This document shows, in pieces, positions 1 to 44,200 of a stretch of DNA of 64,000 nt. The stretch covers positions 806,001 through 870,000 of the forward strand of contig OX439038.1 of assembly GCA_949317995.1 (NCBI GenBank). Direction: 5' to 3'. The notes beneath the pieces are model-generated. The model was not told the origin of the DNA. It worked only from the letters and a program-made list of their open reading frames with translations, and made no database searches. Source of the DNA: Acholoe squamosa (lineage: Eukaryota > Annelida > Polychaeta > Phyllodocida > Polynoidae). Position 1 is the stretch's first letter. Each line of letters opens with the position of its first letter. The position numbers and the translations under genes are program-made.

Positions 1-1408
1 TTATTTGAGTCTATGTTGTACGACAGGTACAGTGGTAAGTAGAGTTATTCAAGTCTATGTTGTATGACAGGTACAGTGGTAATTAAGTAGAGTTATTCAA
101 GTCTATGTTGTATGACAGGTACAGTGGTAAGTAGAGTTATTTAAGTCTATGTTGTATGACAGGTACAGTGGTACGTAGAGTTGTTAAGTCTATGTTGTAT
201 GACAGGTACAGTGGTAATTAAGTAGAGTTATTTAAGTCTATGTTGTATGACAGGTACAGTGGTAATTAAGTAGAGTTATTTAAGTCTATGTTGTATGACA
301 GGTACAGTGGTACGTAGAGTTATTTGAGTCTATGTTGTACGACAGGTACAGTGGTACGTAGAGTTATTTAAGTCTATGTTGTATGACAGGTACAGTGGTA
401 CGTAGAGTTATTTAAGTCTATGTTGTATGACAGGTACAGTGGTAAGTGGAGTTATTTAAGTCTATGTTGTATGACAGGTACAGTGGTAAGTAGAGTTATT
501 TAAGTCTATGTTGTATGACAGGTACAGTGGTAAGTAGAGTTATTTAAGTCTATGTTGTATGACAGGTACAGTGGTAATTAAGTAGAGTTATTTAAGTCTA
601 TGTTGTATGACAGGTACAGTGGTACGTAGAGTTATTTAAGTCTATGTTGTACGACAGGTACAGTGGTAATTAAGTAGAGTTATTTAAGTCTATGTTGTAT
701 GACAGGTACAGTGGTACGTAGATTATTTAAGTCTATGTTGTATGACAGGTACAGTGGTAATTAAGTAGAGTTATTTAAGTCCATGTTGTATGACAGGTAC
801 AGTGGTACGTAGAGTTATTTAAGTCTATGTTGTATGACAGGTACAGTGGTAAGTAGAGTTATTTAAGTCTATGTTGTATGACAGGTACAGTGGTAAGTAG
901 TTATTTAAGTCTATGTTGTACGACAGGTACAGTGGTACATAGAGTTATTTAAGTCTATGTTGTATGACAGGTACAGTGGTAATTAAGTAGAATTATTTAA
1001 GTCTATGTTGTATGACAGGTACAGTGGTAGGTAGAGTTATTTAAGTCTATGTTGTATGACAGGTACAGTGGTAAGTAGAGTTATTTAAGTCTATGTTCTA
1101 TGACAGGTACAGTGGTAAGTAGTTATTTAAGTCTATGTTGTATGACAGGTACAGTGGTAAGTAGAGTTATTTAAGTCTATGTTGTATGACAGGTACAGTG
1201 GTACATAGAGTTATTTAAGTCCATGTTGTATGACAGGTACAGTGGTACGTAGAGTTATTTAAGTCTATGTTGTACAACAGGTACAGTGGTAAGTAGAGTT
1301 ATTTAAGTCTATGTTGTATGACAGGTACAGTGGCAATTAAGTAGAGTGATTTAAGTCTATGTTGTATGACAGGTACAGTGGTAAGTAGAGTTATTTAAGT
1401 CTATGTTG
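1..1408. repeat. 44/48-bp satellite array, left part
   Basis: This is tandem repetition of a unit of about 44 bp (core TCTATGTTGTATGACAGGTA) with a 48-bp variant that carries an extra AATT-type insertion before the GTAGAG end. Copies differ by scattered single-base changes. The array runs off the left edge and is interrupted at 1408/1409 by the LTR element; the broken copy resumes at 14270, which shows that both parts are one array. No gene is seen in it. Confidence 0.97.
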
Positions 1409-1785
1409 TGTAAGGGTTTGTGGCCTTATGGACCTGGGGGGTTCGGGTCTTACGATTCGGAAAGAAAGAGTAAGACAGTATTCCAAGTGTATGCCAACGG
1501 TTAGGTTTATTACTTAATGCACACTCACGGCTGCCGAATGATATCAAAGAGGCAGCTAATATTAAAAGGCAGTGGTTTACATAGTGTGGAGGCCAGAAGG
1601 GCCTCTGACGCAGCGGCTGAGCCCTGGGCTTTATATACGGACCCAGGTGTTCGTCGTCAGATGTCCCCACAGACCCGGATCGGTGCTGCCACCTATCCGG
1701 AACCTGAGGAACGTCCGACGACTCGACTCACCCGCCACGTCAGACGGTACCCAACTCCTATGGTTTAGTAAAGTGTACCTCTACA
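1409..1785 (-). repeat. 3' LTR of the Gypsy element
   Basis: This 377-bp repeat starts TGTAAGGG and ends CTCTACA on the plus strand. It matches 13893-14269 apart from one base at 1429. In element orientation it is the downstream LTR and abuts a polypurine tract at 1786-1798. Confidence 0.95.
1506..1511 (-). terminator. AATAAA polyadenylation signal in the 3' LTR
   Basis: On the minus strand an AATAAA hexamer lies about 125 bp downstream of the LTR TATA box (1631-1637). This matches the usual U3-R-U5 layout, with transcript ends shortly after the hexamer. The copy in the 5' LTR is at 13990-13995. The role is inferred from position. Confidence 0.6.
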
Positions 1786-13891: not shown

Positions 13892-13892
13892 G

Positions 13893-20200: not shown

Positions 20201-22751
20201 GAGTTATTTAAGTCTATGTTGTACGACAGGTACAGTGGTTAGTAGAGTTATTTAAGTCTATGTTGTATGACAGGTACAGTGGTAGGTAGAGTTATTTAAG
20301 TCTATGTTGTATGACAGGTACAGTGGTACGTAGAGTTATTTAAGTCTATGTTGTATGACAGGTACAGTGGTAATTAAGTAGAGTTATTTAAGTCTATGTT
20401 GTATGACAGGTACAGTGGTAAGTAGAGTTATTTAAGTCTATGTTGTATGACAGGTACAGTGATAAGTAGAGTTATTTAAGTCTATGTTGTATGACAGGTA
20501 CAGTGGTAATTTAGTAGAGTTATTTAAGTCTATGTTGTATGACAGGTACAGTGGTAATTAAGTAGAGTTATTTAAGTCTATGTTGTATGACAGGTACAGT
20601 GGTAAGTAGAGTTATTTAAGTCTATGTTGTATGACAGGTACAGTGGTAAGTAGAGTTATTTAAGTCTATGTTGTATGACAGGTACAGTGGTAATTTAGTA
20701 GAGTTATTTAAGTCTATGTTGTATGACAGGTACAGTGGTACGTAGGGTTATTTAAGTCTATGTTGTATGACAGGTACAGTGGTAAGTAGGGTTATTGAAG
20801 TCTATGTTGTATGACAGGTACAGTGGTACGTAGAGTTATTTAAGTCTATGTTGTATGACAGGTACAGTGGTACGTAGGGTTATTTAAGTCTATGTTGTAT
20901 GACAGGTACAGTGGTAAGTAGGGTTATTTAAGTCTATGTTGTATGACAGGTACAGTGGTAATTTAGTAGAGTTATTTAAGTCTATGTTGTATGACAGGTA
21001 CAGTGGTAAGTAGAGTTATTTAAGTCTATGTTGTATGACAGGTACAGTGGTAAGTAGAGTTATTTAAGTCTATGTTGTATGACAGGTACAGTGGTAAGTA
21101 GGGTTATTTAAGTCTATGTTGTATGACAGGTACAGTGGTAATTTAGTAGAGTTATTTAAGTCTATGTTGTATGACAGGTACAGTGGTAAGTAGGGTTATT
21201 TAAGTCTATGTTGTATGACAGGTACAGTGGTAAGTAGAGTTATTTAAGTCTATGTTGTATGACAGGTACAGTGGTAAGTAGAGTTATTTAAGTCTATGTT
21301 GTATGACAGGTACAGTGGTAAGTAGGGTTATTTAAGTCTATGTTGTATGACAGGTACAGTGGTAATTTAGTAGAGTTATTTAAGTCTATGTTGTACGACA
21401 GGTACAGTGGTAAGTAGAGTTATTTAAGTCTATGTTGTATGACAGGTACAGTGGTAAGTAGAGTTATTTAAGTCTATGGTGTATGACAGGTACAGTGGTA
21501 AGTAGAGTTATTTAAGTCTATGTTGTATGACAGGTACAGTGGTACGTAGAGTTATTTAAGTCTATGTTGTACGACAGGTACAGTGGTAAGTAGAGTGATT
21601 TAAGTCTATGTTGTATGACAGGTACAGTGGTAAGTGGAGTTATTTAAGTCTATGTTGTATGAAAGGTACAGTGGTACGTAGAGTTATTTAAGTCTATGTT
21701 GTATGACAGGTACAGTGGTAAATAGAGTTATCTAAGTCTATGTTGTATGACAGGTACAGTGGTAATTAAGTAGAGTTATTTAAGTCTATGTTGTATGACA
21801 GGTACAGTGGTAATTAAGTAGAGTTATTTAAGTCTATGTTGTATGACAGGTACAGTGGTAATTAAGTAGAGTTATTTAAGTCTATGTTGTATGACAGGTA
21901 CAGTGGTACGTAGAGTTATTTAAGTCTATGTTGCATGACAGGTACAGTGGTACGTAGAGTTATTTAAGTCTATGTTGTATGACAGGTACAGTGGTAATTT
22001 AGTAGAGTGATTTAAGTCTATGTTGTATGACAGGTACAGTGGTAAGTAGAGTTATTTAAGTCTATGTTGTATGACAGGTACAGTGGTAATTTAGTAGAGT
22101 GATTTAAGTCTATGTTGTACGACAGGTACAGTGGTACGTAGAGTTATTTAAGTCTATGTTGTATGACAGGTACAGTGGTAATTTAGTACAGTGATTTAAG
22201 TCTATGTTGTACGACAGGTACAGTGGTACGTAGAGTTATTTAAGTCTATGTTGTATGACAGGCACAGTGGTAATTAAGTAGAGTTATTTAAGTCTATGTT
22301 GTATGACAGGTACAGTGGTAAGTAGAGTTATTTAAGTCTATGTTGTATGACAGGTACAGTGGTAAGTAGAGTTATTTAAGTCTATGTTGTACGACAGTTA
22401 CAGTGGTAAATAGAGTTATTTAAGTCTATGTTGTATGACAGGTACAGTGGTACGTAGAGTTATTTAAGTCTATGTTGTACGACAGGTACAGTGGTACGTA
22501 GAGTGATTTAAGTCTATGTTGTATGACAGGTACAGTGGTAAGTAGAGTTATTTAAGTCTATGTTGTATGACAGGTACAGTGGTAAGTAGAGTTATTTAAG
22601 TCTATGTTGTACGACAGTTACAGTGGTAAATAGAGTTATTTAAGTCTATGTTGTATGACAGGTAAAGTGGTAAGTAGAGTTATTTAAGTCTATGTTGTAC
22701 GACAGGTACAGTGGTACGTAGAGTGATTTAAGTCTATGTTGTATGACAGGA
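14270..22751. repeat. 44/48-bp satellite array with higher-order repeats
   Basis: This is the same 44/48-bp unit as at 1-1408, about 8.5 kb here. Marker variants recur at fixed distances: the GTGGTTAG variant is at 15191, 15867, 19559 and 20235, giving a 676-bp local period and a 4368-bp large period. The large block (about 14.5-18.8 kb) is duplicated at about 18.8-22.7 kb with two extra units. The array lies in the intron downstream of the exon at 22962-23110 of the minus-strand host gene. A short degenerate piece continues to about 22803. Confidence 0.96.
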
Positions 22752-22961: not shown

Positions 22962-23110
22962 CTTGAAGGGTTTGGCCCACTCAGGAATGCTGTCATCAAA
23001 TATCTCTGGGGGCATGTCAGCTTTTTCCTTGGCCTGTTGTTTCTGAAGTCGGTGTGTGTAGGCAGCTATGACGGCCGCACGACGGCGCTCCTCCTGTTCT
23101 ATCAGGTCAC
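22962..23110 (-). CDS. RGS22: RGS22 coding exon 16, last in the window
   Basis: 149 bp, phase 1 to 0, acceptor CATAACAG, donor GTATGG. It encodes a charged helix ([20 protein letters not shown]) and [16 protein letters not shown]. The donor shows that the gene goes on; no further exon is visible between 1 and 22961, so the next intron is over 22.9 kb. Confidence 0.87.
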
Positions 23111-26100
23111 CTGTTATGGAGAATTATCACAGATATACCAGTAGTAGGATACAGTTGTATGTGTAGGTTGTGTTTTAGTACTTATTTCAGTTAAGGAAGA
23201 CAAAGGTCCCAGTGGGTAGGAAAATGTTTTATAATTCAAAAGAATTTAATTTCACATCAAATATATCAAAAACCAGCACTCTGAAAAGAGCGCCTATAAA
23301 AAATTGTTAAAAATGGCTGTAATAGGATTTTTTAAATATCCTATGGGAAAGTTCTTTTTTGACGTTTAGTAAAACACAGTTGGCAAACTAAACAAATATC
23401 TTCTCATGAGGTAAACAATAGCAAACATATTCTTGGATTCATTATGATGAAAGCTAACTTACGTCTTCTCATGATGAGTAGTTTTTTCAGAGTGAGGCTG
23501 CCCGACGTGTCATCCCCGTTATACACCAGATCCTTCACAGGGAGCGGCTCCATCAACAACGGCTCTAAATCTACAACAAATTAAACATGTCATATATACA
23601 CCAAGTCCTGTACAGGGAGTGGGTCCATCAGTAACGGCACTAAATCTACAACAAATTAAACACATTATACACCAAGTCCTGTACAGAGAGTGGTTCCATC
23701 AGTAACAGCTCTAAATCTACAACAAATTAAACATGTTATACACCAAGTCCTGTACAGGGAGTGGTTCCATCAACAACGGGTCTAAATCTACAACAAATTA
23801 AACACATTATACACCAAGTCCTGTACAGGGAGTGGTTCCATCAACAACGGCTCTAAACCTACAACAAATTAAACACATTATACACCAAGTCCTGTACAGG
23901 GAGTGGTTCCAACAGTAACGGCTCTAAATCTACAACAAATTAAACATGTTATACACCAAGTCCTGTAAAGGGAGTGGTTCCATCAGTAACGGCTCTAAAT
24001 CTACAAATTAAACATGTTATAAATACACCAAGTCCTGTACAGGGAGTAGGTCCATCAGTAACGGCACTAAATCTACAACAAATTAAACATGTTATAAATA
24101 CACCAAGTCCTGTACAGGGAGTGGGTCCATCAGTAACGGCACTAAATCTACAACAAATTAAACATGTCATAAATACACCAAGTCCTGTACAGGGAGTGGG
24201 TCCATCAGTAACGGCACTAAATCTACAACAAATTAAACATGTCATAAATACACCAAGTCCTGTACAGGGAGTGGGTCCATCAGTAACGGCACTAAATCTA
24301 CAACAAATTAAACACATTATACACCAAGTCCTGTACAGGGAGTGACTCCATCAACAACGGCTCTCAATCTACAACAAATTAAACATGTTATACACCAAGT
24401 CCTGTACAGGGAGTGGTTCCATCAACAACGGCACTAAATCTACAACAAATTAAACATGTTATAAATATACCAAGTCCTGTACAGGGAGTGGGTCCATCAG
24501 TAACGGCACTAAATCTACAACAAATTAAACACATTATACACCAAGTCCTGTACAGAGAGTGGTTCCATCAACAACGGCTCTAAATCTACAACAAATTAAA
24601 CACATTATACACCAAGTCCTGTACAGGGAGTGGTTCCAACAGTAACGGCTCTAAATCTACAACAAATTAAACACATTATACACCAAGTCCTGTACAGGGA
24701 GTGGTTCCATCAGTAACGGCACTAAATCTACAACAAATTAAACATGTTATACACCAAGTCCTGTACAGGGAGTGGGTCCAACAGTAACGGCTCTAAATCT
24801 ACAACAAATTAAACACATTATACACCAAGTCCTGTACAGGGAGTGGTTCCATCAGTAACGGCACTAAATCTACAAGGAAGTCATTAAACACATTCTGTAC
24901 ATTTAAAAATAAGCAGAGTCACAGAGAGCAGGTTGACCAGCAGCAACCCTAGATCTAGATACTTGGCATGACAAAGTTATTTTAACGGATCACAGGTACA
25001 ATACACACTGATAAGTGCAGACTGAAAGCAGCTAGGTTTAAGTTGCCAGGTATGAATACTGGTAGCAGTAACAAGTCTCTAAGCACAGCTTTACACATTA
25101 TATTACTCTATGGTAAGGGCCAGTTACCTATATTGTTGACGTATGCAGTGAACTGCAGGGCCCTCCACATACGACGCTCCAGCAGCACTATACTATAGTA
25201 TATAAAGTGTATAATTACCTATATTGTTGATGTATGCTGTGAGCTGCAGGGCCCTCCACATACGACGCTCCAGCAGTCCTTTGTGGTCCTCCTGAGTGAT
25301 CAACATTCCATTCTCATCCTCCACCTCCTCCTTGTCTATCTGTAATAGGGAGTTTAATGTCAGATGATAAAAGGAATTCATCCATGTATCAGTTTCTGTA
25401 TTAAACACATTATCAAAATAAGTAAGAATTTAACAAGTGGAGAAAGCAAAATTTTAGTAAGGAAAGGTTTCAAAATATTTTTAGATTAGCTTTTGGAATA
25501 ACAACATGTTTATACCTTTTCTGCTGGTTCCTTATTTTCTGCACCTGGACTCTTAGAACTTTCATCGCCTTCTTTATTTTCATTGCCCTGCTCACTTTCC
25601 TTGGCTTTTTCTTCCTTTCTCTCCTCTGAGACATCCTTTGTCTTGTCCTGCAGTTTGTCCTTCTGTTGTTTTCCACCTACTAGGCTCGCGGCCTCCTGGC
25701 GCACCCCCCTGGATGGAGTGCCCTGAGCCAGGGGAGGGAGGATCCTCTCCCCTCGTTGTCTTGGCATGATGCAGGGCATAAGAGGAACCTGCCGAGAACG
25801 GTGGATGCGACCACCTGGTTTGTTGTAGATCTGAAATGGACAATTTATCATTTTAGATTTTGGGTTCATTAAGAATTCTTGGAAAAGGATGCTGTCTGTT
25901 GATGGACCTTGCATGCAACAATACACACAAATGACAAGAAAATCTACTGGGTATTTTATACCTTACTGAAAAAATGAATATGCAGATCAACTATTTCAGC
26001 CTTTGTAAATGTTTTAATGATTTTGAAGTCTACGGGTACCTTTAACACCGAGGCACATCTGCTTGTGTACCTAACCAATTTACCTAGTAATAAAAGAATG

Positions 26101-29100
26101 AGGAGAGAAAAAAGCCATTGTCATTTACTTACGGCTGACTCCATGAAGGTCTCCCTGTCCATGTGTACGTAGCTCTTCCACAGCCCATGGAGACTCTGTA
26201 AGGGGAAGGGTAAAGTATAATGTATGGGTATATGGACCACAGCCCATGGAGACTTTGTAAGGGGAAGGGTAAAGTATAAGGTATGGGTATATGGACCACA
26301 GCCCATGGAGACTCTGTAAGGGGAAGGGTAAAGTATAAGGTATGGGTATATGGACCACAGCCCATGGAGACTCTGTAAGGGGAAGGGTAAAGTATAAGGT
26401 ATGGGTATATGGACCACCGCCCATGGAGACTCTGTAAGGGGAAGGGTAAAGTATAAGGTATGGGTATATGGACCACAGCCCATGGAGACTCTGTAAGGGG
26501 AAGGGTAAAGTATAAGGTATGGGTATATGGACCACAGCCCATGGAGACTCTGTAAGGGGAAGGGTAAAGTATAAGGTATGGGTATATGGACCACCGTCTA
26601 TGGAGACTCTGTAAGGGGAAGGGTAAAGTATAAGGTATGGGTATATGGACCACCGCCCATGGAGACTCTGTAAGGGGAAGGGTAAAGTATAAGGTATGGG
26701 TATATGGACCACCGCCCATGGAGACTCTGTAAGGGGAAGGGTAAAGTATAAGGTATGGGTATATGGAGCACAGCCCATGGAGACTCTGTAAGGGGAAGGG
26801 TAAAGTATAAGGTATGGGTATATGGACCACAGCCCATGGAGACTCTGTATGGGGAAGGGTAAAGTATAAGGTATGGTTATATGGACCACAGCCCATGGAG
26901 ACTCTGTAAGGGGAAGGGTAAAGTATAATGTATGGGTATATGGACCACAGCCCATGGAGACTCTGTAAGGGGAAGGGTAAAGTATAAGGTATGGGTATAT
27001 GGACCACAGCCCATGGAGACTCTGTAAGGGGAAGTGTAAAGTATAAGGTATGGGTATATGGACCACAGCCCATGGAGACTCTGTATGGGGAAGGGTAAAG
27101 TATAAGGTATGGGTATATGGACCACAGCCCATGGAGACTCTGTAAGGGGAAGGGTAAAGTATAAGGTATGGGTATATGGACCACAGCCCATGGAGACTCT
27201 GTAAGGGGAAGGGTAAAGTATAAGGTATGGGTATATGGACCACAGCCCATGGAGACTCTGTAAGGGGAAGGGTAAAGTATAAGGTATGGGTATACATACC
27301 TCAGCTTTACCCATTACATTATAATATGGACAAAACAGGTTTGAATCCCTCATCATTCTGATTGCAAACGATTTTCCCTGTACCATCATTAGATGTTGGA
27401 GTATAAGTGAGAAAACCTCCTCAGCCTAGGAGGTTCTGTGCCATAATCTCCACCTCCGCAGAGGTTTTCCATCCCATTATGGTGGACAATACTATATTGG
27501 TATAATGCCATGTAATGGTGCATACCTGACTAAGGTAGTCCTGTACATGTATCAGCAGACTGTCGGCTTTACCCATGACGATCAGTTTACGTACAGCTGC
27601 ACTAACACCTGGTGGCAGTTGGACAAACTCAGGACAGCAGCCTTTTTTACGCTGCAGCGGGTTAGGGTCTGTCTCATTAAGGAACCTGAAAAAGGGGAAA
27701 CAAAATAAAAAGTGACTGACAATCTTCAAAATTGTCAACAATCTGTAATAATAACTTGCAACAGGTCTATTACAATGATCCCCAACTTGTAAAAACAACC
27801 AATAACCTGTAAAGATAAAACTACCAACAATCTTCAACCTGTAAAATATATGTTCACATATCTCGCACACATTTTCTTCTTTTGCCATTGTTGTGAGATT
27901 GTTCATTGCGTCAGTCGCATCTACCGCGCAGTGCTGCTGCATGGTGTTAAAAGTAGATACTACTGTAACTACCATTGTTATGGGTTGCCCAGTCTATGCG
28001 TAACCGTACTTCTGTCAATAAAACAACTGTTGTTCGGGCCATGTCATCGTTCACATGAGTTTCTCACCGAGCAGATAAACCCATCCTAAAACAGCCATAG
28101 GTACTGTTGAGTGTAATTTTCTTTCCTTTAGAAATGGGCTCTAGCTGTACAAATCTAGGTCAGAAATGGAGGTAGACCTCCATATTTACTTGTTTACCAG
28201 TGTATACCTACTGTACATCTCCATTGTAAACTTGTATACCTCTCACTGTATACCTACCTTAATATAAGTTGGTTAGCCCTCCAGTGCCTGAGTTGTGTGG
28301 TGCGAGGTTCCTGAGGCATTATCGTGTTTAGTGACAGGTAGACATGGATCTCCTCCCACAGCCTCACGCACCGCGCCTCTGCCTCATGTTTGTACCGCAG
28401 CAGGTAGGAGACAAATGGATGTCCACACTGCAGGTCTGCAGCTAGGGAACGCACCAAGACCTGTCATATAGAGATTTGTAAGTTGCATGGTAAGACGCCA
28501 GTAAACACATCAATACCTGTCACAAGGGAAGTAATCTCTTTCCCATTTTCCATCATTTGAGCTAGAACTAAAGAGGCAGTTTAAAATGCTCTGTCAGTTC
28601 TTTTTCCAATGATGAATTTCTAGGTTACATTTGGAGAAAGGGAGAGACAAATATGCTTAGTGCTATTGAAAGAGAAATGCTCTTTAGTTATAGTAGTTAA
28701 TTGAAGTTTATTTTGAGTTTTGAACTTTGTCATTTTAAGGTCCATATTGTATGCTTTTTCTGACTGAAATTTTGATGATCCCTCATCAATTGCAAAAGAG
28801 TGAATATCAGTTTCTTGAATAATCTTTAAAAAGAAGTAACTAAAATCTGCACTGTTTGGAGAGGAAAGAGAGCTGTTTTTAAAGCTGGTTTAAAGTAGAG
28901 TTTAACTGTTAGATTTACCTTGTTGTCGTAGCGGTAGTTGCCCTCAGATATATTGGTGTAGGAGAAACCGAGTGGAGTAATACTCGCTGGTTCCCTCTCA
29001 CCGAGCCTGGCCATGTCCCCAGTACTAAGGGATGGCAGGGTGTTGGTGCACTTAGTGGCAGATATCAGGCTCCTCCTTGTTAACCTCTGTCTGTGGTGCG

Positions 29101-32100
29101 AAGGCGATCTAGGACCGGCCTTCACCCCATGGCTCGCCTTTAGACTCGGCAGCTTCAGGTCCTCATGCATCGACCCGGTTCCCTTTAGCTCATTATTTGT
29201 TTTTGTGTCACTGAATTCACATGTCCTAGACCGTGATAGGCCAATCTCTGAGTACAAGGTCACCGGCTGACCTTGGATTTGGGTTTTACCTTGGATTTGT
29301 TCAAACAAGGCGAGGTTGTCAGTGACGATTCTCTTTCTGCGCTGTTCTTCCTCGGCTATCTGTGCCACCAGGTTCCTCGTTACCTGCTCAGGGTCGACTT
29401 CATCTGGGATCAACTTCGGGTACATTGGCGCCACCTCTGTACAGATGAAAAACAAAGACTGGATGAAACAAGCCTTAATTATGTGAGTGTAGACATGAAA
29501 ACTACAACTAAGGTTTCAACCATTTGGAAAGGAAAAGTTCAACAAAAGAATTATTTACTGCTTCAAACTCTTCTTAAAATTGACTTTTCCACAAACTCAG
29601 GTTGCGTCTTATTTACGGTATTATGTATGATACTTAGTGCATCATGAAGGCACTATACTGCACTTAATGTGATAATCCCATGTGTAACTTATTGTCATAT
29701 CGCGATAGTCTATGATTATCAGTTATATAGACATGACTGATATTAGTTTGCGGTAAAGGTGTATTTATTACAGCATATTGTAAAGTCTTAAGGTATAGAT
29801 GATGGTAGTAATGCGGTGTATGCTGGTGTCTCCCAGTAAGTTGGAGTGCAGCGTGTATATAGAGTAGATGGGTATGGGTATGTGGTACTAGGGCGCAGCC
29901 TAGGCATCTGTTTAGTACATGGTACAGTAAGGTTTAACGTATATAGCGGTGAAATATATGTGATAATGATTAACATATGTAGATGGAGGTTTCAATATAT
30001 AACATTATAACAAATAAGCAGCTGATAAGTACCTACCCCATTGTAGCTCCTGAGAACATATAACATTATAACAAGTAAGAACCTACCCCATTGTAGCTCC
30101 TCCTGAGAACATATAACGTTATAACAAGTAAGTACCTACCCCATTGTAGCTCCTCCTGAGAACATGTAACGTTATAACAAGTACCTACCCCATTGTAGCT
30201 CCTCCTGAGAACATATAACGTCATAACAAGTAAGTACCTACCTCATTGTAGCTCCTCCTGAGAACATATAACGTTATAACAAGTAAGTACCTACCCCATT
30301 GTAGCTCCTCCTGAGAACATGTAATGTTATAACAAGTAAGAACCTACCCCATTGTAGCTCCTCCTGAGAACATATAACACTATAACAAGTAAGTACCTAC
30401 CCCATTGTAGCTCCTCCTGAGAACATATAACACTATAACAAGTAAGTACCTACCCCATTGTAGCTCCTCCTGAGAACATGTAATGTTATAACAAGTAAGT
30501 ACCTACCCCATTGTAGCTCCTCCTGAGAACATGTAATGTTATAACAAGTATGTACCTACCCAATTGTAGCTCCTCCTGAGAACATGTAATGTTATAACAA
30601 GTAAGTACCTACCCCATTGTAGCTCCTCCTGAGAACATATAACACTATAACAAGTAAGAACCTACCCCATTGTAGCTCCTCCTGAGAACATATAACACTA
30701 TAACAAGTAAGTACCTACCCCATTGTAGCTCCTCCTGAGAACATATAACACTATAACAAGTAAGTACCTACCCCATTGTAGCTCCTCCTGAGAACATGTA
30801 ATGTTATAACAAGTAAGTACCTACCCCATTGTAGCTCCTCCTGAGAACATGTAATGTTATAACAAGTATGTACCTACCCCATTGTAGCTCCTCCTGAGAA
30901 CATGTAATGTTATAACAAGTAAGTACCTACCCCATTGTAGCTCCTCCTGAGAACATATAACGTCATAACAAGTAAGTACCTACACCATTGTAGCTCCTCC
31001 TGAGAACATGTAACGTCATAACAAGTATGTACCTACCCCATTGTAGCTCCTCCTGAGAACATGTAATGTCATAACAAGTATGTACCTACCCCATTGTAGC
31101 TCCTCCTGAGAACATATAACGTCATAACAAGTAAGTACCTACCCCATTGTAGCTCCTCCTGAGAACATGTAATGTCATAACAAGTATGTACCTACCCCAT
31201 TGTAGCTCCTCCTGAGAACATATAACGTCATAACAAGTAAGTTCCTACCCCATTGTAGCTCCTCCTGAGAGCATGTAATGTTATAACAAGTATGTACCTA
31301 CCCCATTGTAGCTCCTCCTGAGAACATATAACGTCATAACAAGTACCTACCTCATTGTAGCTCCTCCTGAGAACATATAACGTCATAACAAGAAAGTACC
31401 TACCCCATTGTAGCTCCTCCTGAGAACATATAACACTATAACAAGTAAGTACCTACCCCATTGTAGCTCCTCCTGAGAACATGTAATGTTATAACAAGTA
31501 AGTACCTACCCCATTGTAGCTCCTCCTGAGAACATGTAATGTTATAACAAGTATGTACCTACCCCATTGTAGCTCCTCCTGAGAACATGTAATGTTATAA
31601 CAAGTAAGTACCTACCCCATTGTAGCTCCTCCTGAGAACATATAACGTCATAACAAGTAAGTACCTACACCATTGTAGCTCCTCCTGAGAACATGTAACG
31701 TCATAACAAGTATGTACCTACCCCATTGTAGCTCCTCCTGAGAACATGTAATGTCATAACAAGTATGTACCTACCCCATTGTAGCTCCTCCTGAGAACAT
31801 ATAACGTCATAACAAGTAAGTACCTACCCCATTGTAGCTCCTCCTGAGAACATATAACGTCATAACAAGAAAGTACCTACCCCATTGTAGCTCCTCCTGA
31901 GAACATATAACGTCATAACAAGTAAGTACCTACCCCATTGTAGCTCCTCCTGAGAACATATAACGTCATAACAAGAAAGTACCTACCTCATTGTAGCTCC
32001 TCCTGAGAACATGTAACGTTATAACAAGTAAGTACCATACTTCATTGTAGCTCCTCCTGAGAACATATAGCGTCATAACAAGTAAGTACCTACCTCATTG

Positions 32101-33148
32101 TAGCTCCTCCTGAGAACATATAACGTTATAACAAGTAAGTACCTACCCCATTGTAGCTCCTCCTGAGAACATATAACGTTATAACAAGTAAGTACCTACC
32201 CCATTGTAGCTCCTCCTGAGAACATATAACGTTATAACAAGTAAGTACCTACCCCATTGTAGCTCCTCCTGAGAACATATAGCGTCATAACAAGTAAGTA
32301 CCTACCTCATTGTAGCTCCTCCTGAGAACATATAACGTTATAACAAGTAAGTACCTACCTCATTGTAGCTCCTCCTGAGAACATATAACGTTATAACAAG
32401 TAAGTACCTACCCCATTGTAGCTCCTCCTGAGAACATATAACGTTATAACAAGTAAGTACCTACCTCATTGTAGCTCCTCCTGAGAACATATAACGTTAT
32501 AACAAGTAAGTACCTACCCCATTGTAGCTCCTCCTGAGAACATGTAACGTTATAACAAGTACCTACCCCATTGTAGCTCCTCCTGAGAACATATAACGTC
32601 ATAACAAGTAAGTACCTACCTCATTGTAGCTCCTCCTGAGAACATATAACGTTATAACAAGTAAGTACCTACCCCATTGTAGCTCCTCCTGAGAACATAT
32701 AACGTCATAACAAGTAAGTACCTACCTCATTGTAGCTCCTCCTGAGAACATATAACGTTATAACAAGTAAGTACCTACCCCATTGTAGCTCCTCCTGAGA
32801 GCATGTAATGTTATAACAAGTACCTACCCCATTGTAGCTCCTCCTGAGAACTGCTCTCTGAGCTGCTGCTGCTGCTCTCAAAGTAACGCTCCAACATGAC
32901 CTCAAACTCTGACCCCAGCCGGGTCAAGGTCACCTCCCCGTCCACGTGTGACGTCACAATGTCGCCTGATGTCAGGAATGTGTCATCAATCTGTACACCC
33001 GGGAACATGGACATCCAGTTTGCTTTGGCTCCGTCAGCCTTGGTCTTTTTGTTAGGCATGGTGGCACCCTGCGCCACAGTGAGGGCCTGTGTGAAATGAG
33101 TGGATAAAGGACAATGAATGACAAACATCGAATGATTGGAGATGTTGA

Positions 33149-33216
<68 letters not shown>

Positions 33217-35130
33217 GTCATTCCAAGATTTACTGGACATGTTCCTTGGGCATATAATAGCAAGGGGAAATACTTCTACACCACCAATAATATTGTTATT
33301 CCTTAGTGGGGGGTCATAGATTTCCATATGGTTTGGGTGAGTCTTGGGGCATAATTTATGTTTTATATGCATTTAATGTTCACGAGTGGAATGTTACTGG
33401 TAGAGTCTATCTAACCTGGTTAGGGAATATCACCAGTCTTCTCATCATATGCAATCAAGAGGTACCTGGGGGGGGTCTTCCATAAAAAAAACCTGTTGAT
33501 GTACTCTGGGAATTACCCATGCCAGGTACATATATGTGATTTTCAATGCACACCACAATCAGTAACGTTCCAGGGGCGTTACTGATGGTTACAGATATTA
33601 TTGGATAGTCAAAGTTATATTTACCACCTTGTATAGTGTTTGTAGCATTTCTTTTCAATTGTAGACGTGTCTGGCTTAAGTGAAAAGAGTACTTGGTGTA
33701 TGTAAACATACATTTTAGCACCACATATGAATAGGGAACGTTTTTGAGATGATTAGAGGTCTACTTTTATAGTACCAACTTATTATCTTGTATGGTGTTT
33801 CTATCAATTGTATTCAATTGTAGACATGTTTGGCTTATGAGAAAAGACTACTGTAATCTCTCACGTATAAGGCGCATCTCGCGTACAAGGCGCACCTAGA
33901 GTTGAAGAATATTGTCAAAAAAAAAAAATTCATAACTTTGGTTCTACTGAATGAATTTTCAAAATTCAAAAAGCTATGTGTAGCTAGGGCCCCCCACACC
34001 CCGTTGAATACCCCTATGTTATTTTTTGAGTTAGGGGGAGTGTAACATCAAAATAAAGCTCTTGGTTTCCCCCTTGCCGATCCAGGAAGAACTAAAACCC
34101 TTGTATAAGACGCGCCTTATATGCGAGCGATTATGGTATTTGGTGTATGTAAAGATACATTTTAGCACCATATGGCATGTGAACGTAGCAACAAGTGTAC
34201 AAAAAGTTGTGATTTTTAATTTTCAAAGTGATCTAAGACGCCCAAGATGGGCCTCATGCATTTTTAAATGACTCTATATATGTAGTACATATTTTATCTT
34301 TTATTATTGTTTATGTGATGCCAATGGTATATGATGATGCAAGGATGAGCTGAGATCATTTTTTGAATGGTTAATGAATAGGGAAGGTTACTGATAGTAC
34401 ATGCAATATGGCCTCTACGCAGGTACTGACTATGCAGTACAAGTATTACATATCAGGCTAATTGTAATTATTCTGTAGCTCTACTAGAAACCATGGACAG
34501 TTAATATAGTCATTGTATAAAGGATTTTGAATGAGCCAGGTTAAAATTAAGAAATGGGAGAATAAATTTCCAAATTTTCAGCGGGCCTCCCCAGCCCCAG
34601 GCCATCTTTAAAAGGGGTCTATGTCTTGCTTTTCTATCCTCTCTGAGTGTGGGTGGTGTCCATATGCGCGGGCACTGGCACATATTCGTTCCTTGAATCT
34701 CCTCTTTCCTGTCCCCTCTTTCTTACATGTGTCTGGTGTCCATATGCACGGGCACAGGCACATGTATTCCTTTGTGACGTGATGTCTAATGTACTTTTTC
34801 CGCCATGAATATGACCTTAGCTGTCGGCTTGGCGTTAAACAACCATTACTCACTCACTCACTCAAATTTTCAGAGTTTCCAATTTTTCCGCCAATGCCTA
34901 ACTTCAAGAGTTTTCGAGCCTCACTTTAGCTTTTTGGTATACATAAAGTCATACTTTTTTGGAAGGTTTTAGGGCATCTGTGATAAAAACTGACATCTTA
35001 GGAGTTGGATCCTTGAATGAACCTTTTTAATAATCCAAGATATAGGGCTATCAATAAAATATGTTATTAAGAAATACTGAGTTTGTTATTTCCAGTCCCA
35101 GGACCCCCAGGACCAGTAAATCCATATATG

Positions 35131-35220
<90 letters not shown>

Positions 35221-38200
35221 TGCAGGGCATGTCTAAGAATTACAAGTCAATCATCCCATGTTTTCAACCTTAGTCATAAGCATGGTACCCATCTGATAAC
35301 TGTTATCAACGGTAACCAGGTTCAGCAATGGTTACCTCCATATAAAGGTCCACCTCTTTCTCTATACAGATGATTGGTATACAAACTGTAATAGGAGGTC
35401 TAAAACTTCCATTTAGGCCCATCTAGTGGAGTATAGCTCCAAAGATGGGAGTGCATGATTGCATTTTAGGGTATGCGTGCTGATCAAGTCAAATACAATA
35501 AAGTAACTACAAACCTTGTTTGCTTTATATGTTATACTGCACATTAGAAGAGAGACAAATCCATCATTGTGTGAATCAGTTGTAAGAAATAACACATGAT
35601 GTGCTCTTGCAACAAGTTTCTGTGTGAATTATGCATCAATAATTAGATTTCACCATTGTTTGGTGTCGTCCCACACTGTCACTACCTAAGCAACATGGTG
35701 ATCAACTTTTCGATCTGACGCGTTTCAACATCCAACATAATCGGCCAATCTTGTCACTTTCAAATACTACTCACAACTAAAACAGACTTATTTTATCTAC
35801 AGGTCTAGATTAGTTTCAATAATTTCGAATCTTAATTACTAGTCATATCTTGACTTTGAAAAGTGTGAATGTAAACAATCCGTGGGGTTGACGATTTATT
35901 TTCACATCAAAACCAATTTTCCTTATAAAATATTTATGAATTGACAAATTCTAATTGCACACAAATACGTATTTGACAGAGGGCTTTTACATGGTATAAA
36001 GGTTTATTATAAAAAAAAGAAATCATGAATCGACTTTTGTGGACTTTGAAATTTCGCCACCCCCTGACTGCAGAAGCCAAGTCAGGACTATGTATCCTCA
36101 ATATGTGATAAGCCTCAGCTCTCATATGTCCCTCCTGGCTAATTGTGTGAGTAAGTTGTTTAAAATGTGTACAAACCTTGTCTATGTCCTCCATGTCTTG
36201 TAGAAGACGTAGGTGAGACACACTCTGTATCTTGGTGGAGTCCTCAGGAGGCGGTTGTTGTTTGAGCCGCAGTGCTTTATGGTGCAGTAGGTACTTCTGC
36301 AGCCAATACTGCTGCACCAAGGTCATCACCGAGTTCTGAAGGTCACGGAAAGATGCCGGAACATTTTCATCTGATTCCAGGTCAAAGTCAGCAGCTGTGT
36401 TGCCATCTGGGAACATGGAATACATGTGTGTATAAGACAACATTCTTTTAAGTTTTGACGACCATACAAGTACTAGAACCATTAGGGGTATAAAATGACA
36501 AAATGTATTTCCTCTAGAGCACCTTACACTGCCTCACAAGGACTTGCACTCACTACATAAACATCACATGAATATGATACATGTCAGGAATGGTCCTGAT
36601 GGGCATCAGATATGCCAAACTACTCATAACTTCTGTTTAGACTTTTTTGCAACCAAATGATACTTACTGTCTTGCTAATGAACTCAATGTTTATTATATG
36701 GACCAAGAAACACATACAGTATGGTTCAATAAATCGGTCTGGAAGATTATTTAGATCTCGATGAAGACCACAAAAAAAAAGGGAAAAAAAGACTAATCTC
36801 TCTCGTAGAAGGCACAGCCCGAGTAGAAGGCACACCCACAACTTAAAGAAGGCTGGTTCGTGTAGAATTGGTATACTGAAAAACCCCGCGTATAAGGCGC
36901 ACCCCCAACTCAGGGGATCTGGTCCGCGTACATGGCGCACCATGTGCATGGCCTGCATACAAGAGTCTCCTTGTAGTTGGGGATAGCCTTAGTTAGGGCT
37001 AAGATCAGATTGGGTATCTGATCATGATCATTTATAATCATGTATTCAATAGGAATGATTCCTAGAAGTGCCACCCGATGGAGCCAGTATACCATTTATA
37101 TACACTTGCTATATGTTTGACTTAAGAATAGATGTTCAAACTATGTTTAGATAATGTTTTGATTTAAATTCATTCCCTAACATGCTACAACATTGATAGA
37201 ATGCATGAATGTATGAAAAGAAATCAAAAGAACTGATGATACAATGTTAGAGATAAGTTCTACTTCTGTTCACACCTCATTTGTAGCATTCAAACAAATA
37301 TATGATCAGCGTCACACCCAACCTGATCTCAATTGAGATATCAGAAAAACCAGCATATAAGGCACACCCCCAACTCAAGGCAGCCTGCCTCTTGGTATAA
37401 GACCCACCTACGAGCTGATTTGCATATAAGACGCGCCTTATACGCAGGAGATTAGGGTACTACAAAATGATAACAAAACAAACTATAACAATCCTTACCA
37501 TTGAGAGCCTGCCATAAGCCATTGTTACCCAGGTTGGTCAGCCCCTCTGGTTTATAATACTTAATCTGAATCTCTCTGAACAGAAGTCGCCTCAGGCCAC
37601 GCTGTCTCGTTCTGTGAAACCGCTCAGCATCCTTCCAGAATTCTAATATCTGATATAGGATATAATATATAGTAAAAATGATAGCCTGTATAGATTAACC
37701 CTTTAAATCCCCATACTGCATATATGCAGTACTATAACACTGTATTTGGGGATCATTTTTCATCATATCAACTATTCAAATGATTGATCTGGTAATTTTA
37801 GGATGAGAAAGCACACATTTTCAGGTTTCCAAAACTGTTTAAATTGAAAAAAAATTGCACCACAATGGAGGTGAGGGTTTTGAGAGATTATTTTTGTAAT
37901 TTGTAATTTTTTCAAAGGATGCAGATTTTTTGGGGTATTTTTGTTTGTAGAATGGTGATAAAAACAGTACATGCGGCTGATTTTAATAGATGCGGGCGGT
38001 ATCCCCAAAGCTGACTATCAATTTTATGCAGCCTCACATATTTAAATTGAATATAATTGTACAGTACCAAAAGTTTTTGCTCAGTGGCTTATCAAATGCG
38101 AAAAAAAAGAGCAAAAAAAAAAAGAAGAAGAGAACTCACTCTTGCCCCAGTGGAGCCTGCGAGGTACAACCTGAACTGGCACATTCCAACAACATGACCA

Positions 38201-41200
38201 ATCACAGATCTCACAAATGTCTTGTCCTCCAAGATCCGGAACTTCTCTGAAAAATAGACAAGAATGAAATGAGCTGGCACCAAGTTTAACTCAGAGTGAG
38301 AAGCTAACTACAGCCATGGCACCAAGCTTAACTCAGAGTGAGAAGCTAAACTACAGCCATGGCACCAAGTTTAACTCAGAGTGAGACGCTAACTACAGCA
38401 ATGGCACCAAGTTTAACTCAGAGTGAGAAGCTAACTACAGCCATGGCACCAAGTTTAACTCAGAGTGAGAAGCTAACTACAGCCATGGCACCAAGTTTAA
38501 CTCAGAGTGAGAAGCTATACTACAACCATGGCACCAAGTTTAACTTAGAGTGAGAAGCTATACTACAGCCATGGCACCAAGTTTAACTCAGAGTGAGAAG
38601 CTAACTACAGCCATGGCACCAAGTTTAACTTAGAGTGACAAGCTATACTACAGCCATGGCACCAAGTTTAACTCAGAGTGAGACGCTAACTACAGCCATG
38701 GCACCAAGTTTAACTCAGAGTGAGAAGCTATACTACAGCCATGGCACCAAGTTTAACTCAGAGTGAGACGCTAACTACAGCCATGGCACCAAGTTTAACT
38801 CAGAGCGAGAAGATAACTACAGCCATGGCACCAAGTTTAACTCAGAGTGAGAAGCTAACTACAGCCATGGCACCAAGTTTAACTTAAAGTGAGAAGATAA
38901 CTACAGCCATGGCACCAAGTTTAACTCAGAGTGAGACGCTAACTACAGCCATGGCACCAAGTTTAACTCAGAGTGAGAAGCTATACTACAGCCATGGCAC
39001 CAAGTTTAACTCAGAGTGAGACGCTAACTACAGCCATGGCACCAAGTTTAACTCAGAGTGAGAAGCTATACTACAGCCATGGCACCAAGTTTAACTCAGA
39101 GTGAGAAGCTAACTACAGCCATGGCACCAAGTTTAACTTAGAGTGAGACGCTATACTACAGCCATGGCACCAAGTTTAACTCAGAGTGAGAAGCTAACTA
39201 CAGCCATGGCACCAAGTTTAACTCAGAGTGAGAACCTATACTACAGCCATGGCACCAAGTTTAACTCAGAGTGAGAACCTATACTACAGCCATGGCACCA
39301 AGTTTAACTCAGAGTGAGAAGCTAACTACAGCCATGGCACCAAGTTTAACTCAGAGTGAGAAGCTAACTACAGCCATGGCACCAAGTTTAACTCAGAGTG
39401 AGAAGCTAACTACAGCCATGGCACCAAGTTTAACTCAGAGTGAGAAGCTATACTACAGCCATGGCACCAAGTTTAACTCAGAGTGAGACGCTAACTACAG
39501 CCATGGCACCAAGTTTAACTTAGAGTGAGACGCTAACTACAGCCATGGCACCAAGTTTAACTCAGAGTGAGAAGCTAACTACAGCCATGGCACCAAGTTT
39601 AACTCAGAGTGAGAACCTATACTACAGCCATGGCACCAAGTTTAACTCAGAGTGAGAAGCTAACTACAGCCATGGCACCAAGTTTAACTCAGAGTGAGAA
39701 GCTAACTACAGCCATGGCACCAAGTTTAACTCAGAGTGAGAAGCTAACTACAGCCATGGCACCAAGTTTAACTCAGAGTGAGAAGCTATACTACAGCCAT
39801 GGCACCAAGTTTAACTCAGAGTGAGACGCTAACTACAGCCATGGCACCAAGTTTAACTTAGAGTGAGACGCTAACTACAGCCATGGCACCAAGTTTAACT
39901 CAGAGTGAGAAGCTAACTACAGCCATGGCACCAAGTTTAACTCAGAGTGAGAAGCTAACTACAGCCATGGCACCAAGTTTAACTCAGAGTGAGAAGCTAA
40001 CTACAGCCATGGCACCAAGTTTAACTCAGAGTGAGACGCTAACTACAGCCATGGCACCAAGTTTAACTCAGAGTGAGACGCTAACTACAACCATGGCACC
40101 AAGTTTAACTCAGAGTGAGACGCTAACTACAGCCATGGCACCAAGTTTAACTCAGAGTGAGAAGCTAACTACAGCCATGGCACCAAGTTTAACTCAGAGT
40201 GAGAAGCTAACTACAGCCATGGCACCAAGTTTAACTCAGAGTGAGAAGCTATACTACAACCATGGCACCAAGTTTAACTCAGAGTGAGAAGCTAACTACA
40301 GCCATGGCACCAAGTTTAACTCAGAGTGAGAAGCTAACTACAGCCATGGCACCAAGTTTAACTCAGAGTGAGATGCTAACTACAGCCATGGCACCAAGTT
40401 TAACTCAGAGTGAGAAGCTAACTACAGCAATGGCACCAAGTTTAACTCAGAGTGAGACGCTAACTACAGCAATGGCACCAAGTTTAACTCAGAGTGAGAA
40501 GCTAACTACAGCCATGGCACCAAGTTTAACTCAGAGTGAGACGCTAATTACAACCATGGCACCAAGTTTAACTCAGAGTGAGACGCTAACTACAGCCATG
40601 GCTGCACTTATGGTCATTCGTTGTTTACACAGTGTGGTGTTTGTAGTAAACAGTTAGTCTATTACCAGGGTATATATGCTTGAACTTACCATAGTCTATA
40701 TCATGTGAACTGGTAGAGAAGTGAGGGCGTATGGTCATGAGTTGTTCACACAGCAGGTACTCAAGGTAGTACTCTGAGCGTGTGAAGTATGGCAAGCGCT
40801 CCTGACGCAGCCACTTTGTTAGCTTCTGCTTCTCCAGCACCTACAGAGAAAACAAGAGATCATAACAAAAGCCAACAGTTAGAACTATGTGCTTCTCCAG
40901 CACCTACAGAGAAAACAAGAGATCATAACAAAAGTCAACAGTTAGAACTACCGTATGTGCTTCTCCAGCACCTACAGAGAAAACAAGAGATTATAACAAA
41001 AGTCAACAGTTAGAACTATGTGCATTGCATGGTCCATTAATGTTTGTAAACAACACTTGGCATCTTCTACTTGGCTTTTATCATCTACTTGGTTTTCTTA
41101 TAAGTGTGATATGTGTCTCCATGGTACACAGACGTTACTGTAAAACCTGCAGTCTAAGCCACAGCTCGGGGAAAGCCTTGTTATTGGGGTGCTCCCAAAG

Positions 41201-44200
41201 TTATGGTGTGGCATCTGCCCAATGTGAGGGCAGAATTGATATTCATAAGTAAGGGTCCCATTTTATAGTGTCATGTAATGCAGGTTTACCTGTTGCCGGC
41301 GTTTGAGTGGAGGGTCAAACTGGAAGGTCTTTTTATCATACATATACATCAGCCTCTGTGAGAAGGACTGCAAGGGAAAAGACAGAATTATCTCTGGTTA
41401 CAAAGTGGTTTAAATAGTACAAGTTGCCTATGAGACAGAATTATCTCTGGTTACAAAGTGGTTTAAATAGTACAAGTTGCCTATGAGACAGAATTATCTC
41501 TGGTTACAAAGTGGTTTAAATAGTACAAGTTGCCTATAAGACAGAATTATCTCTGGTTACAAAGTGGTTTAAATAGTACAAGTTGCCTATGAGACAGAAT
41601 TATCTCTGGTTACAAAGTGGTTTAAATAGTACAAGTTGCCTATGAGACAGAATTATCTCTGGTTACAAAGTGGTTTAAATAGTACAAGTTGCCTATAAGA
41701 CAGAATTATCTCTGGTTACAAAGTGGTTTAAATAGTACAAGTTGCCTATAAGACAGAATTATCTCTGGTTACAAAGTGGTTTAAATAGTACAAGTTGCCT
41801 ATGAGACAGAATTATCTCTGGTTACAAAGTGGTTTAAATAGTACAAGTTGCCTATAAGACAGAATTATCTCTGGTTACAAAGTGGTTTAAATAGTACAAG
41901 TTGCCTATAAGACAGAATTATCTCTGGTTACAAAGTGGTTTAGATAGTACAAGTTGCCTATAAGACAGAATTATCTCTGGTTACAAAGTGGTTTAGATAA
42001 TACAAGCTGCCTCTAAGACAGAATTATCTCTGGTTACAAAGTGGTTTATATAATACAAGCTGCCTATAAGACAGAATTCTCTCTGGTTACAAAGTGGTTT
42101 ATATAATACAAGCTGCCTATAAGACAGAATTATCTCTGGTTACAAAGTGGTTTAGATAATACAAGCTGCCTATAAGACAATTATCTCTGGTTACAAAGTG
42201 GTTTATATAATACAAGCTGCCTATAAGAGTAGTATATAGTGTTTATAAGATTACAGACTGCTGCAACTTCTCCCAGTAGCTCCTGGTGCAGCTTTTTAAC
42301 AAACATACAAAGTTTGAAGTGCCTTTTATACACAAAGATGTACTCTATCATATGATCATCGTTTTTTTTTATTAGATTATTTTTCTTTTACTATATATCC
42401 AGTCAGAAACCAACAGAGCCAAGTCTACTCACTGGTAGTGACAGGAAGACATTGAAGAAATCAACAAAGGTTTCATCCATCATTAGATGGCCAAAGTCAT
42501 CCTCAGAGATTTCTGAAAAATGATTAAAACAATTCCATTTAATGTTGATTTTTCATACTGAAAGTTGTCACATATATTTGCATTATGAATGTTTTAAGAA
42601 GGTGGCCTCAGCTAGCTCTGTGGTAGAATATAATCGTCAAGTTGCTTTAGAGTACTGCCTACTGGTGCCCCTCCTAGTAAAATAGAGATAAAAGGATAAG
42701 GGACGAGTCATTTATTGCCAGGTGGGGGGGGGGGCTTTTCAGATATAGGGGGGCATTTTGAAAAAGCCCCTTGGTGGGGGGGCAAAACCGAATAAACCTT
42801 CACATTGGGGGGGGGGGGGGGTCAAAACTAAATATGGGCAATTCAAATACCTATTGTGTCATGTCATTCCATGCATGTATCTGATTTTTTTTTTTTTTTT
42901 TTTGGGGGGGGGGGGGGCGTGGTCATTTTGCAAAATCAGTTCTTATTGGGGGAGGGGCACAATCATTTTTGTCATAATGGTTGGGGGTGGGAAAAAAATC
43001 TGTCGATTGGCCAAAATCCATCTAGCCCCCCCACCCATCCATTGGCAATAAATGACACACAATCTACTAAGCTTTCTCAGTGGAGCTGCCTTGCCCTAGG
43101 CTTAGCTTAGGTTTCTAAATAAATATTTTTAATTCATGCGATATCCAGTTACCACTTGAAAATGAAATCAAACTTCAATTAAAAGAAAATATAACTCGTT
43201 TTTCTAGTGTTATTGACATTGGGTGCACACATGGCAAGGAAATTGGTCAGAGAAAATCAGCTAAAGACAAGTGTATTAAATCTTGCTGTGACTGTGAGTC
43301 AGGGGAAATCTGCCAAATTCATGACTGACATTTTTATAATAGAACAGAAAAGGGGGGTTCGGGGCTGTGCTCACATTTTACCGACTGATAAAAGAGAGTT
43401 CCAATGAACTCTTCCATCAAAACCCCATGATCTAAGGGGCTGTATACAAATGACGTCATGCAGGAGGGGGGTCCCATTCTCCATGACCAAGCATGACAAG
43501 GGAGTCATGGGCTGCATGACATCATGTCATCAAGAAATCACAATTTACTTTGGTTTTGTCAAAAAAAAAAGAGACAAGATTTGTAAAGGTAGGAAGTTAA
43601 ATGCATTCATTTGACATAAAATATCTATTCCCTATACATGCATGCTTTCCTCAAACATCCCTCTCAATGAGTGTCATGGGCATGAATGTCAATGTTGGAT
43701 GTCCAGGGTCCACTGCTCTATCCTACCTCTAATCTAAGCCCCATACCAATTTAAAGGAGCTCTGAATTGGCGATGTTGCCACAGTGCAAAAGTGGGCGGA
43801 GTTAACTCCTCCATTCAGTCTCAGAGAGCCTTTAGAATACCCTTTGTGTTGGATCTATTTTACAATAGCACCCCATATATAGGTTGACCCCCCCCCTATG
43901 TAATATGTACCCTGACATAGAAAGATTCGAAATGACATAACTTCTATTCTAATTAATTTTTTTCCCAATTCAAAAACCTATGGGTGATTTAGGGAGTGCT
44001 TGTTTCTCATAAACAGGGGCGTGGTGGATTTCCATGTACAGGCGCAGACTGCAATATTCTCAGTCATCCCCTTTATTTCATAGTAATTCACAGGCTTTTT
44101 GTTTGCTGAAAAGGAACCCCTGTTGAAGTGTCAAAATTATTTTGCTCCACACCCCCCCCCCAATCTACCCCCTCCCCCTCTTGATAAATAATGAATGAGC

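What the first reader, a model, noticed from the sequence alone, without database searches (positions are those of the whole stretch)
23463..41030. Minisatellites seeded on splice junctions in one gene, at five separate sites
In the RGS22-like gene at least five repeat expansions have units that contain a true splice site plus adjacent exon bases: the exon 4 acceptor (3 copies), exon 8 donor (about 53), exon 12 acceptor (about 19), exon 14 donor (2) and exon 15 acceptor (about 18). The units are unrelated in sequence and length (63, 53, 59, about 90 and 71 bp), so the events were independent. The common feature is the junction. This suggests a process (R-loop, replication-transcription conflict or repair at splice sites) that repeatedly amplifies exon-intron borders, with copy numbers from 2 to over 50 showing stages of growth.
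Basis: partly seen in the sequence, partly recalled or inferred. Interest (0 to 1): 0.85.

Follow-up and report, generated by a model that had tools for sequence, protein, structure and literature searches.

The report
Repeat arrays copying splice junctions
Near the chromosome ends of this invertebrate genome, short stretches that straddle exon-intron borders have been copied in tandem, up to about 100 times, inside introns, much like the "mirages" of amphioxus and the "exon stuttering" of chicken, while the coding message appears to stay readable.

Summary
In detail: a phase-consistent RGS22-like exon chain gives the five junctions, copy numbers and unit lengths as stated. I extended the gene and modelled two neighbours (a coiled-coil gene and CYLD): 50 introns, 100 junctions. 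A uniform scan found 30 intronic tandem arrays; 12 span a splice junction (8 donors, 4 acceptors), 18 do not. Random placement expects 5.4 in the same introns (P 0.002) and 3.6 in any intron (P 6e-5). The two genes not used to pick the finding give 6 of 16 against 2.3 (P 0.015); RGS22 alone is weak (6 of 14, P 0.055), CYLD alone is not significant. So junctions are favoured about 2-3 fold, not exclusively. The window lies 0.8 Mb from a contig end; arrays are dense within about 2 Mb of ends and sparse inside. Four interior CCT genes (about 68 junctions) have no array at a junction; two of three subtelomeric loci on other chromosomes have one. The kind is known: amphioxus mirages, chicken dot-chromosome exon stuttering. 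New here: a probably protostome genome, subtelomeric setting, AT-rich introns, up to 99 copies, and a chance model. The cause of the junction bias is unresolved; R-loops or conflicts were not tested.

The parts
22962..53898 (-). RGS22-like gene, exons 1-16 (continues leftwards outside the window to exon 25 and an exon 26 acceptor)
   Evidence: GT-AG chain, consistent phases, 903 aa open in the window, 1348 aa to exon 25; RGS domain; homologues
40690..40840 (-). Exon 4
   Evidence: homology to P0001 and P0002
40827..41023 (-). 63-bp array, 3 copies, spanning the exon 4 acceptor (14 exonic bases)
32828..33086 (-). Exon 8
30026..32851 (-). 53-bp array, about 53.7 copies, spanning the exon 8 donor (24 exonic bases)
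26133..26195 (-). Exon 12
26178..27294 (-). 59-bp array, about 18.9 copies, spanning the exon 12 acceptor (18 exonic bases)
25219..25339 (-). Exon 14
25124..25276 (-). Two-copy tandem duplication (period 91) spanning the exon 14 donor (58 exonic bases)
   Evidence: converted from gene-sense positions
23463..23570 (-). Exon 15
23518..24894 (-). 71-bp array, about 19 copies, spanning the exon 15 acceptor (53 exonic bases)
38275..40602 (-). 42-bp array, 55 copies, intron 4, ends 28 nt from the exon 5 acceptor; does not span a junction
41379..42228 (-). 53-bp array, 16 copies, intron 2, ends 11 nt from the exon 3 acceptor; does not span a junction
14270..22750 (-). 44-bp array, intron 16, right part; does not span a junction
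1..1409 (-). 44-bp array, intron 16, left part (continues to -4984 outside the window), split from the right part by a retrotransposon

Best explanation
These are mirage- or exon-stuttering-type minisatellites. In a subtelomeric region where short tandem duplications arise and expand often, segments of roughly 40-150 bp are duplicated locally; a segment that straddles an exon-intron junction is hit 2-3 times more often than random placement predicts. Unequal exchange, conversion or slippage then grows and homogenises the array. Shown: the arrays, their junctions, the moderate enrichment in three pooled genes, the chromosome-end setting. Inferred: only the exon-proximal copy is used in splicing (exon definition), because use of other copies would nearly always break the frame, so that the array is tolerated rather than useful. 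Unsettled: why junctions are favoured; recombination or repair starting at GC-richer, transcribed exon edges is my preferred guess.
For: 12 of 30 arrays in three genes span a junction against 5.38 expected in the same introns (P 0.0022) and 3.55 in any intron (P 5.8e-5); 6 of 16 against 2.32 (P 0.015) in the two genes not used for picking. Both donors (8) and acceptors (4). Array-bearing pieces: 5 of 9 within 2 Mb of the ends of C4, 2 of 11 inside; 5 of 8 at 1.0 Mb on eight other contigs. Interior CCT genes: 0 of about 68 junctions. Donor-spanning arrays at subtelomeric loci on C14 and C6. Copies: 217 of 220 found keep GT or AG, 3 of the 217 would leave the frame open. Exon GC 0.515-0.55, intron GC 0.376-0.391. 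Same anatomy in amphioxus and chicken.
Against: The bias rests on pooling: RGS22 alone P 0.055, CYLD alone 3 of 12, P 0.2. 18 of 30 arrays do not span a junction, 4 of them ending within 30 nt of one. At 300-400 nt inside introns the spanned fraction is not zero (1 of 26, 1 of 20). The subtelomeric C1 locus has arrays on both sides of its exon and at neither junction. Old two-copy duplications may be easier to see when they contain exon. No transcripts and no second individual were available. Splice dinucleotides of the copies are no better kept than much of the unit.
Confidence: 0.7

Rival explanations
1. No junction bias: a subtelomeric minisatellite-rich region hits anything, introns are short, and junction-spanning units are those that happen to fall there; splicing tolerates them.
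For: Array cover is 0.43-0.45 of intron bases in the three genes; median collapsed intron 385 bp, about 5 of 30 expected by chance; RGS22 alone P 0.055 and CYLD alone P 0.2; 18 arrays miss junctions.
Against: Pooled P 0.0022 in the strictest model; TRF-only arrays 10 of 24 against 4.17 (P 0.003); genes not used for picking P 0.015; spanned fraction falls from 12 of 100 at the junction to 3 of 96 at 80 nt inside the intron.
Confidence: 0.22
2. One reading: R-loops, replication-transcription conflict or repair at splice sites repeatedly amplify exon-intron borders.
For: Junction excess; recurrence in at least five genes counting two subtelomeric loci elsewhere.
Against: Does not by itself explain the concentration near chromosome ends or the 18 arrays away from junctions; interior CCT genes, expected to be transcribed, have none at junctions. 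Not tested directly.
Confidence: 0.2
3. The copies are kept because they do something, e.g. as spare splice sites or regulators of splicing.
For: 217 of 220 copies found keep GT or AG and 150 of the 217 score as well as the true site within 0.5 (the search for copies favours this).
Against: Splice dinucleotides are not better conserved than 24-47 other fully conserved columns of the unit in the larger arrays; 3 of 217 copies would leave the frame open.
Confidence: 0.05
4. Assembly artefact or wrong exon models.
For: One assembly only; no reads or transcripts could be examined.
Against: Copies differ from one another; chains are phase-consistent and open; CYLD aligns to PDB 2vhf, E 3.8e-114; a retrotransposon interrupts one array.
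Confidence: 0.03

Closest known systems
Amphioxus mirages (Adh3, globins BflGb6 and BflGb9, troponin C, PGBD5)
   Same: Minisatellite-like tandem duplications that span intron-exon boundaries, at 5' and 3' boundaries, several genes, copies mostly with intact splice signals (PMC3087553 passages; PMC3902484 passages).
   Different: There 10-160 bp units and, for BflGb6, 3 or 6 units, with RT-PCR showing normal splicing and somatic or haplotype length variation reported; here up to 99 copies, no RNA or population data, and a genome that does not look cephalochordate.
Exon stuttering of avian dot chromosomes (PMC12954441)
   Same: Introns filled with local repeats of tens to hundreds of bp, some including an exon edge with its donor or acceptor; special chromosomal compartment; exon parts 20-187 bp, median 36, 1 to 44 copies there (passages, section 7 part 1), 14-79 bp, median 26.5 here.
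   Different: Chicken genes are GC-rich and the authors propose GC content and recombination as drivers; here exon GC is 0.515-0.55 and intron GC 0.376-0.391, and the compartment is subtelomeric.
Ordinary subtelomeric minisatellites
   Same: Unit size, homogeneous arrays, position near chromosome ends (general knowledge; positions).
   Different: 12 of 30 here include a splice junction, more than placement predicts.

Membership tests
Mirage | Tandem duplication spanning an intron-exon boundary | tested here: met
   12 of 30 arrays in three genes
Mirage | Both 5' and 3' boundaries can be duplicated | tested here: met
   8 donors, 4 acceptors
Mirage | Many copies keep AG or GT signals | tested here: met
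   217 of 220 copies found; the finder missed diverged copies and looked at six dinucleotides only for donors
Mirage | Regular splicing is not disturbed | not testable with these tools
   No transcripts at hand; only the open exon chains
Mirage | Length instability among haplotypes or in the soma | not testable with these tools
   One assembly
Mirage | Found in cephalochordates (where the term was coined) | tested here: inconclusive
   Genome unnamed, 1.48 Gb; best named CYLD hit is the brachiopod Lingula anatina, 56%, then arachnids and bivalves; RGS22 hits are a hemichordate, an echinoderm and a gastropod
Exon stuttering | Repetitive introns with local expansions, some from exon edges | tested here: met
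   23 of 50 introns hold an array, 0.44 of intron bases; 12 arrays include an exon edge
Exon stuttering | Concentrated in a special chromosomal compartment | tested here: met
   Near contig ends: 5 of 9 and 5 of 8 pieces against 2 of 11 inside; a sample, not the genome
Exon stuttering | GC-rich genes | tested here: not met
   Exon GC 0.515-0.55, intron GC 0.376-0.391
Exon stuttering | Extensive length variation among individuals | not testable with these tools
   One assembly

The most novel reading that the evidence does not exclude
Exon-intron junctions are preferred starting points of tandem duplication wherever local recombination or repair is intense, in animals as distant as amphioxus, birds and this probable protostome; subtelomeres here expose the process without need of high GC, and leave rows of dozens of intact, similarly strong splice sites among which exon definition must choose one.
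Probability: 0.35. Interest if true: 0.8.

Novelty: new member of a known kind. Interest (0 to 1): 0.55.

Why it matters
If the bias holds genome-wide, splice junctions are hot spots of tandem duplication in at least three animal lineages. That bears on intron gain, on intron length and on how the spliceosome picks one site among dozens of near-identical ones. The AT-rich introns here argue against GC-richness as a needed cause, and the gradient towards chromosome ends points to recombination or repair. The arrays are natural material for a direct test of exon definition against first-site choice.

Tried and rejected
Selection on the copies: no special protection of splice dinucleotides seen. 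Common origin of the units: rejected. Microhomology at duplication ends: looked at by eye at a few sites, no conclusion. More subtelomeric genes by domain search: Pkinase gave two matches within 2 Mb of an end besides a repeated subtelomeric family, fn3 none, WD40 one; each of these lists is capped (129 of 929, 150 of 351 and 150 of 699 candidates scored), and right-hand ends of C8, C10, C11, C13 and C15-C18 could not be classed because I did not know their lengths. Paper searches for earlier reports showed, for junction-spanning arrays, amphioxus and chicken only; an earthworm metallothionein paper describes intron minisatellites, in the passages I saw without junction units; an amphioxus VCBP paper was looked at in passages only. 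The library lacks most subscription journals; the original Adh3 mirage paper is known to me by citation and recall, not read. Phage, RNA-family and tRNA searches found nothing.

Weak points of my own models: the interior control is coarse (about 34 introns counted by me from the domain pieces; CCT genes only). Exon 1 and exon 26 of RGS22 and exon 4 of CYLD rest on phase and open frame, not on homology; the exon part of the exon 26 copies is strongly diverged. LG has no family search behind it; 'coiled-coil' is my reading of the sequence. The copy finder missed diverged copies (0 in LG intron 3, 2 in LG intron 4, 3 in RGS22 intron 25). At C14 the spanned donor belongs to the exon next to the matched one, and at C6 only about 4-9 exonic bases are in the unit. 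Exon models of L052, L053 and L062 come from my own simple gene finder.
Full report
CHECK OF THE OBSERVATION. The window holds an RGS22-like gene on the minus strand. Sixteen exons form a chain with GT-AG ends, consistent phases and 903 aa without a stop. Pfam finds an RGS domain (E 4.7e-7); the three homologues found come from Ptychodera flava, Diadema setosum and Batillaria attramentaria, 30-33% identical over 25-30% of the query.

WIDER GENE SET. I fetched the 100 kb on either side. Tandem arrays cover 2% to 66% of 24-kb bins. RGS22 continues leftwards to exon 25 (1348 aa open); the acceptor of exon 26 is preceded by a 64-bp array of about 8 copies whose exonic part has drifted. Two other genes were noticed from coding potential, not from arrays: LG, 12 exons, 999 aa and a stop, at -80953 to -67473 in window coordinates, plus strand; and CYLD, 15 exons at 65817-86750, minus strand, 914 aa and a stop, incomplete at its start. 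CYLD matches PDB 2vhf (E 3.8e-114) and many CYLD proteins; three of its upstream exons were found by homology, one by phase. Junction-spanning arrays there: LG exon 3 donor (about 2 copies; by eye the second is interrupted by a MITE-like insert), exon 4 donor (6), exon 11 donor (99); CYLD exon 1 donor (2.7), exon 2 donor (16), exon 8 donor (12).

CHANCE MODEL. A uniform scan (TRF with period 20 or more; self-BLAST for short duplications; at least 6 bases on either side of a junction) gave 31 rows in 50 introns; the 44-bp array split by a retrotransposon was counted once, leaving 30. Twelve span a junction. Each array was collapsed to one unit and placed at random. In the same intron 5.38 are expected (P 0.0022), in any intron of the three genes 3.55 (P 5.8e-5). 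Subsets, same-intron model: TRF-detected 10 of 24 against 4.17 (P 0.003); three copies or more 9 of 20 against 4.04 (P 0.0085); eight or more 7 of 15 against 2.95 (P 0.013); LG plus CYLD 6 of 16 against 2.32 (P 0.015); LG 3 of 4 against 0.72 (P 0.013); CYLD 3 of 12 against 1.60 (P 0.2); RGS22 6 of 14 against 3.07 (P 0.055). Sliding the point into the intron lowers the spanned fraction from 12 of 100 to 6 of 100 at 50 nt and 3 of 96 at 80 nt; at 300 and 400 nt it is 1 of 26 and 1 of 20. Four further arrays end within 30 nt of a junction without crossing it. The bias is moderate and rests on pooling; P values treat arrays as independent. An earlier run on 46 introns gave 10 of 21 against 4.25 (P 0.0032).

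CHROMOSOME CONTEXT. The window is C4:806001-870000 of a 91.3-Mb contig. Of twenty 2-kb pieces along C4, 5 of 9 within 2 Mb of an end hold arrays against 2 of 11 inside, mean cover 0.39 against 0.04 (my tally). At 1.0 Mb on eight other contigs 5 of 8 one-kb pieces hold arrays. A kinase frame repeated close to many contig ends suggests that these are chromosome ends. Seven RGS loci elsewhere have array cover of at most 0.027. Four CCT genes inside chromosomes (about 34 introns by my count of the pieces) show no array in three genes and, in the fourth (C14), one TRF array and one adjacent duplication lying inside an intron. Twelve of 100 against 0 of about 68 junctions gives P 0.0017. CCT genes are conserved housekeeping genes, so this control is coarse.

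OTHER SUBTELOMERES. Of Pkinase, fn3 and WD40 matches within 2 Mb of an end of a contig whose length I knew, leaving out the repeated kinase family, there were three, and I read all three. C14, 0.71 Mb: the exon next to the matched one, ending in HRDLKPENLL, has a donor-spanning array of 2.5 diverged units of 55 bp. C6, 1.9 Mb from the end: a WD40 exon is followed by 15 units of 61 bp that include its donor and about 4-9 exonic bases. C1, 1.1 Mb from the end: arrays of 11 and 7 units lie on either side of the exon, at neither junction. So two of three loci hold a junction-spanning array.

COPIES. Across the 12 arrays 220 copies were found by similarity; 217 keep GT or AG, 150 of these score within 0.5 of the true site or better, and 3 of them would leave the frame open. 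In the six larger arrays splice dinucleotides are well kept, but so is much of the unit (22 to 47 fully conserved columns). I see no sign of selection on copies, and infer that exon definition picks the exon-proximal copy. For the exon 12 acceptor array this means the last of about 19 similar acceptors, against a simple first-site rule.

COMPARISON. The anatomy is that of amphioxus mirages (PMC3087553 passages; PMC3902484 passages) and of chicken exon stuttering (PMC12954441: passages; first parts of sections 7 and 9). The chicken authors report that over 90% of exon sources lie within one base of the exon border, suggest GC content and recombination as drivers, and know it otherwise only from gerbil genes; the word mirage does not occur in their text. 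Here introns are AT-rich, so high GC is not needed. I found no report in a protostome in seven searches of an open-access library.

VERDICT. Real, recurrent, moderately biased to junctions, regional, and of a known kind. The mechanism of the bias is open.

Noticed in passing
G000 contig ends, e.g. C7:588-1190, C6:57860-58462, C1:127042068-127042670: A protein-kinase frame (316 aa open, Pkinase positions about 57-263) recurs close to the ends of at least 11 large contigs and on small contigs C21, C36, C38 and C40: a subtelomeric repeat family.
   Followed up: no
window 1409-14269: A Ty3-like LTR retrotransposon with long open frames sits inside the 44-bp array of intron 16; its LTRs are 99.7% identical over 378 bp (one difference) and the flanks share GTTG. 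Described only.
   Followed up: partly
window 40603-40690: By eye, a degenerate stretch resembling part of exon 4 (40730-40760) lies beyond its donor: perhaps an old duplication of that donor; not found by the scan and not counted.
   Followed up: no
window 25124-25276: The extra copy of the exon 14 tail is close to the exon (3 differences in about 60 bases by eye) while the intron parts are much more diverged.
   Followed up: no
window 55035-56201: A 388-aa reverse-transcriptase-like (LINE-type) frame upstream of the gene; hits up to 57% identity, many with the RVT domain.
   Followed up: partly
G000:C17:15068710-15172866: Many fn3 matches on one strand within about 100 kb: a giant titin- or twitchin-like gene (the name is a guess).
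   Followed up: no
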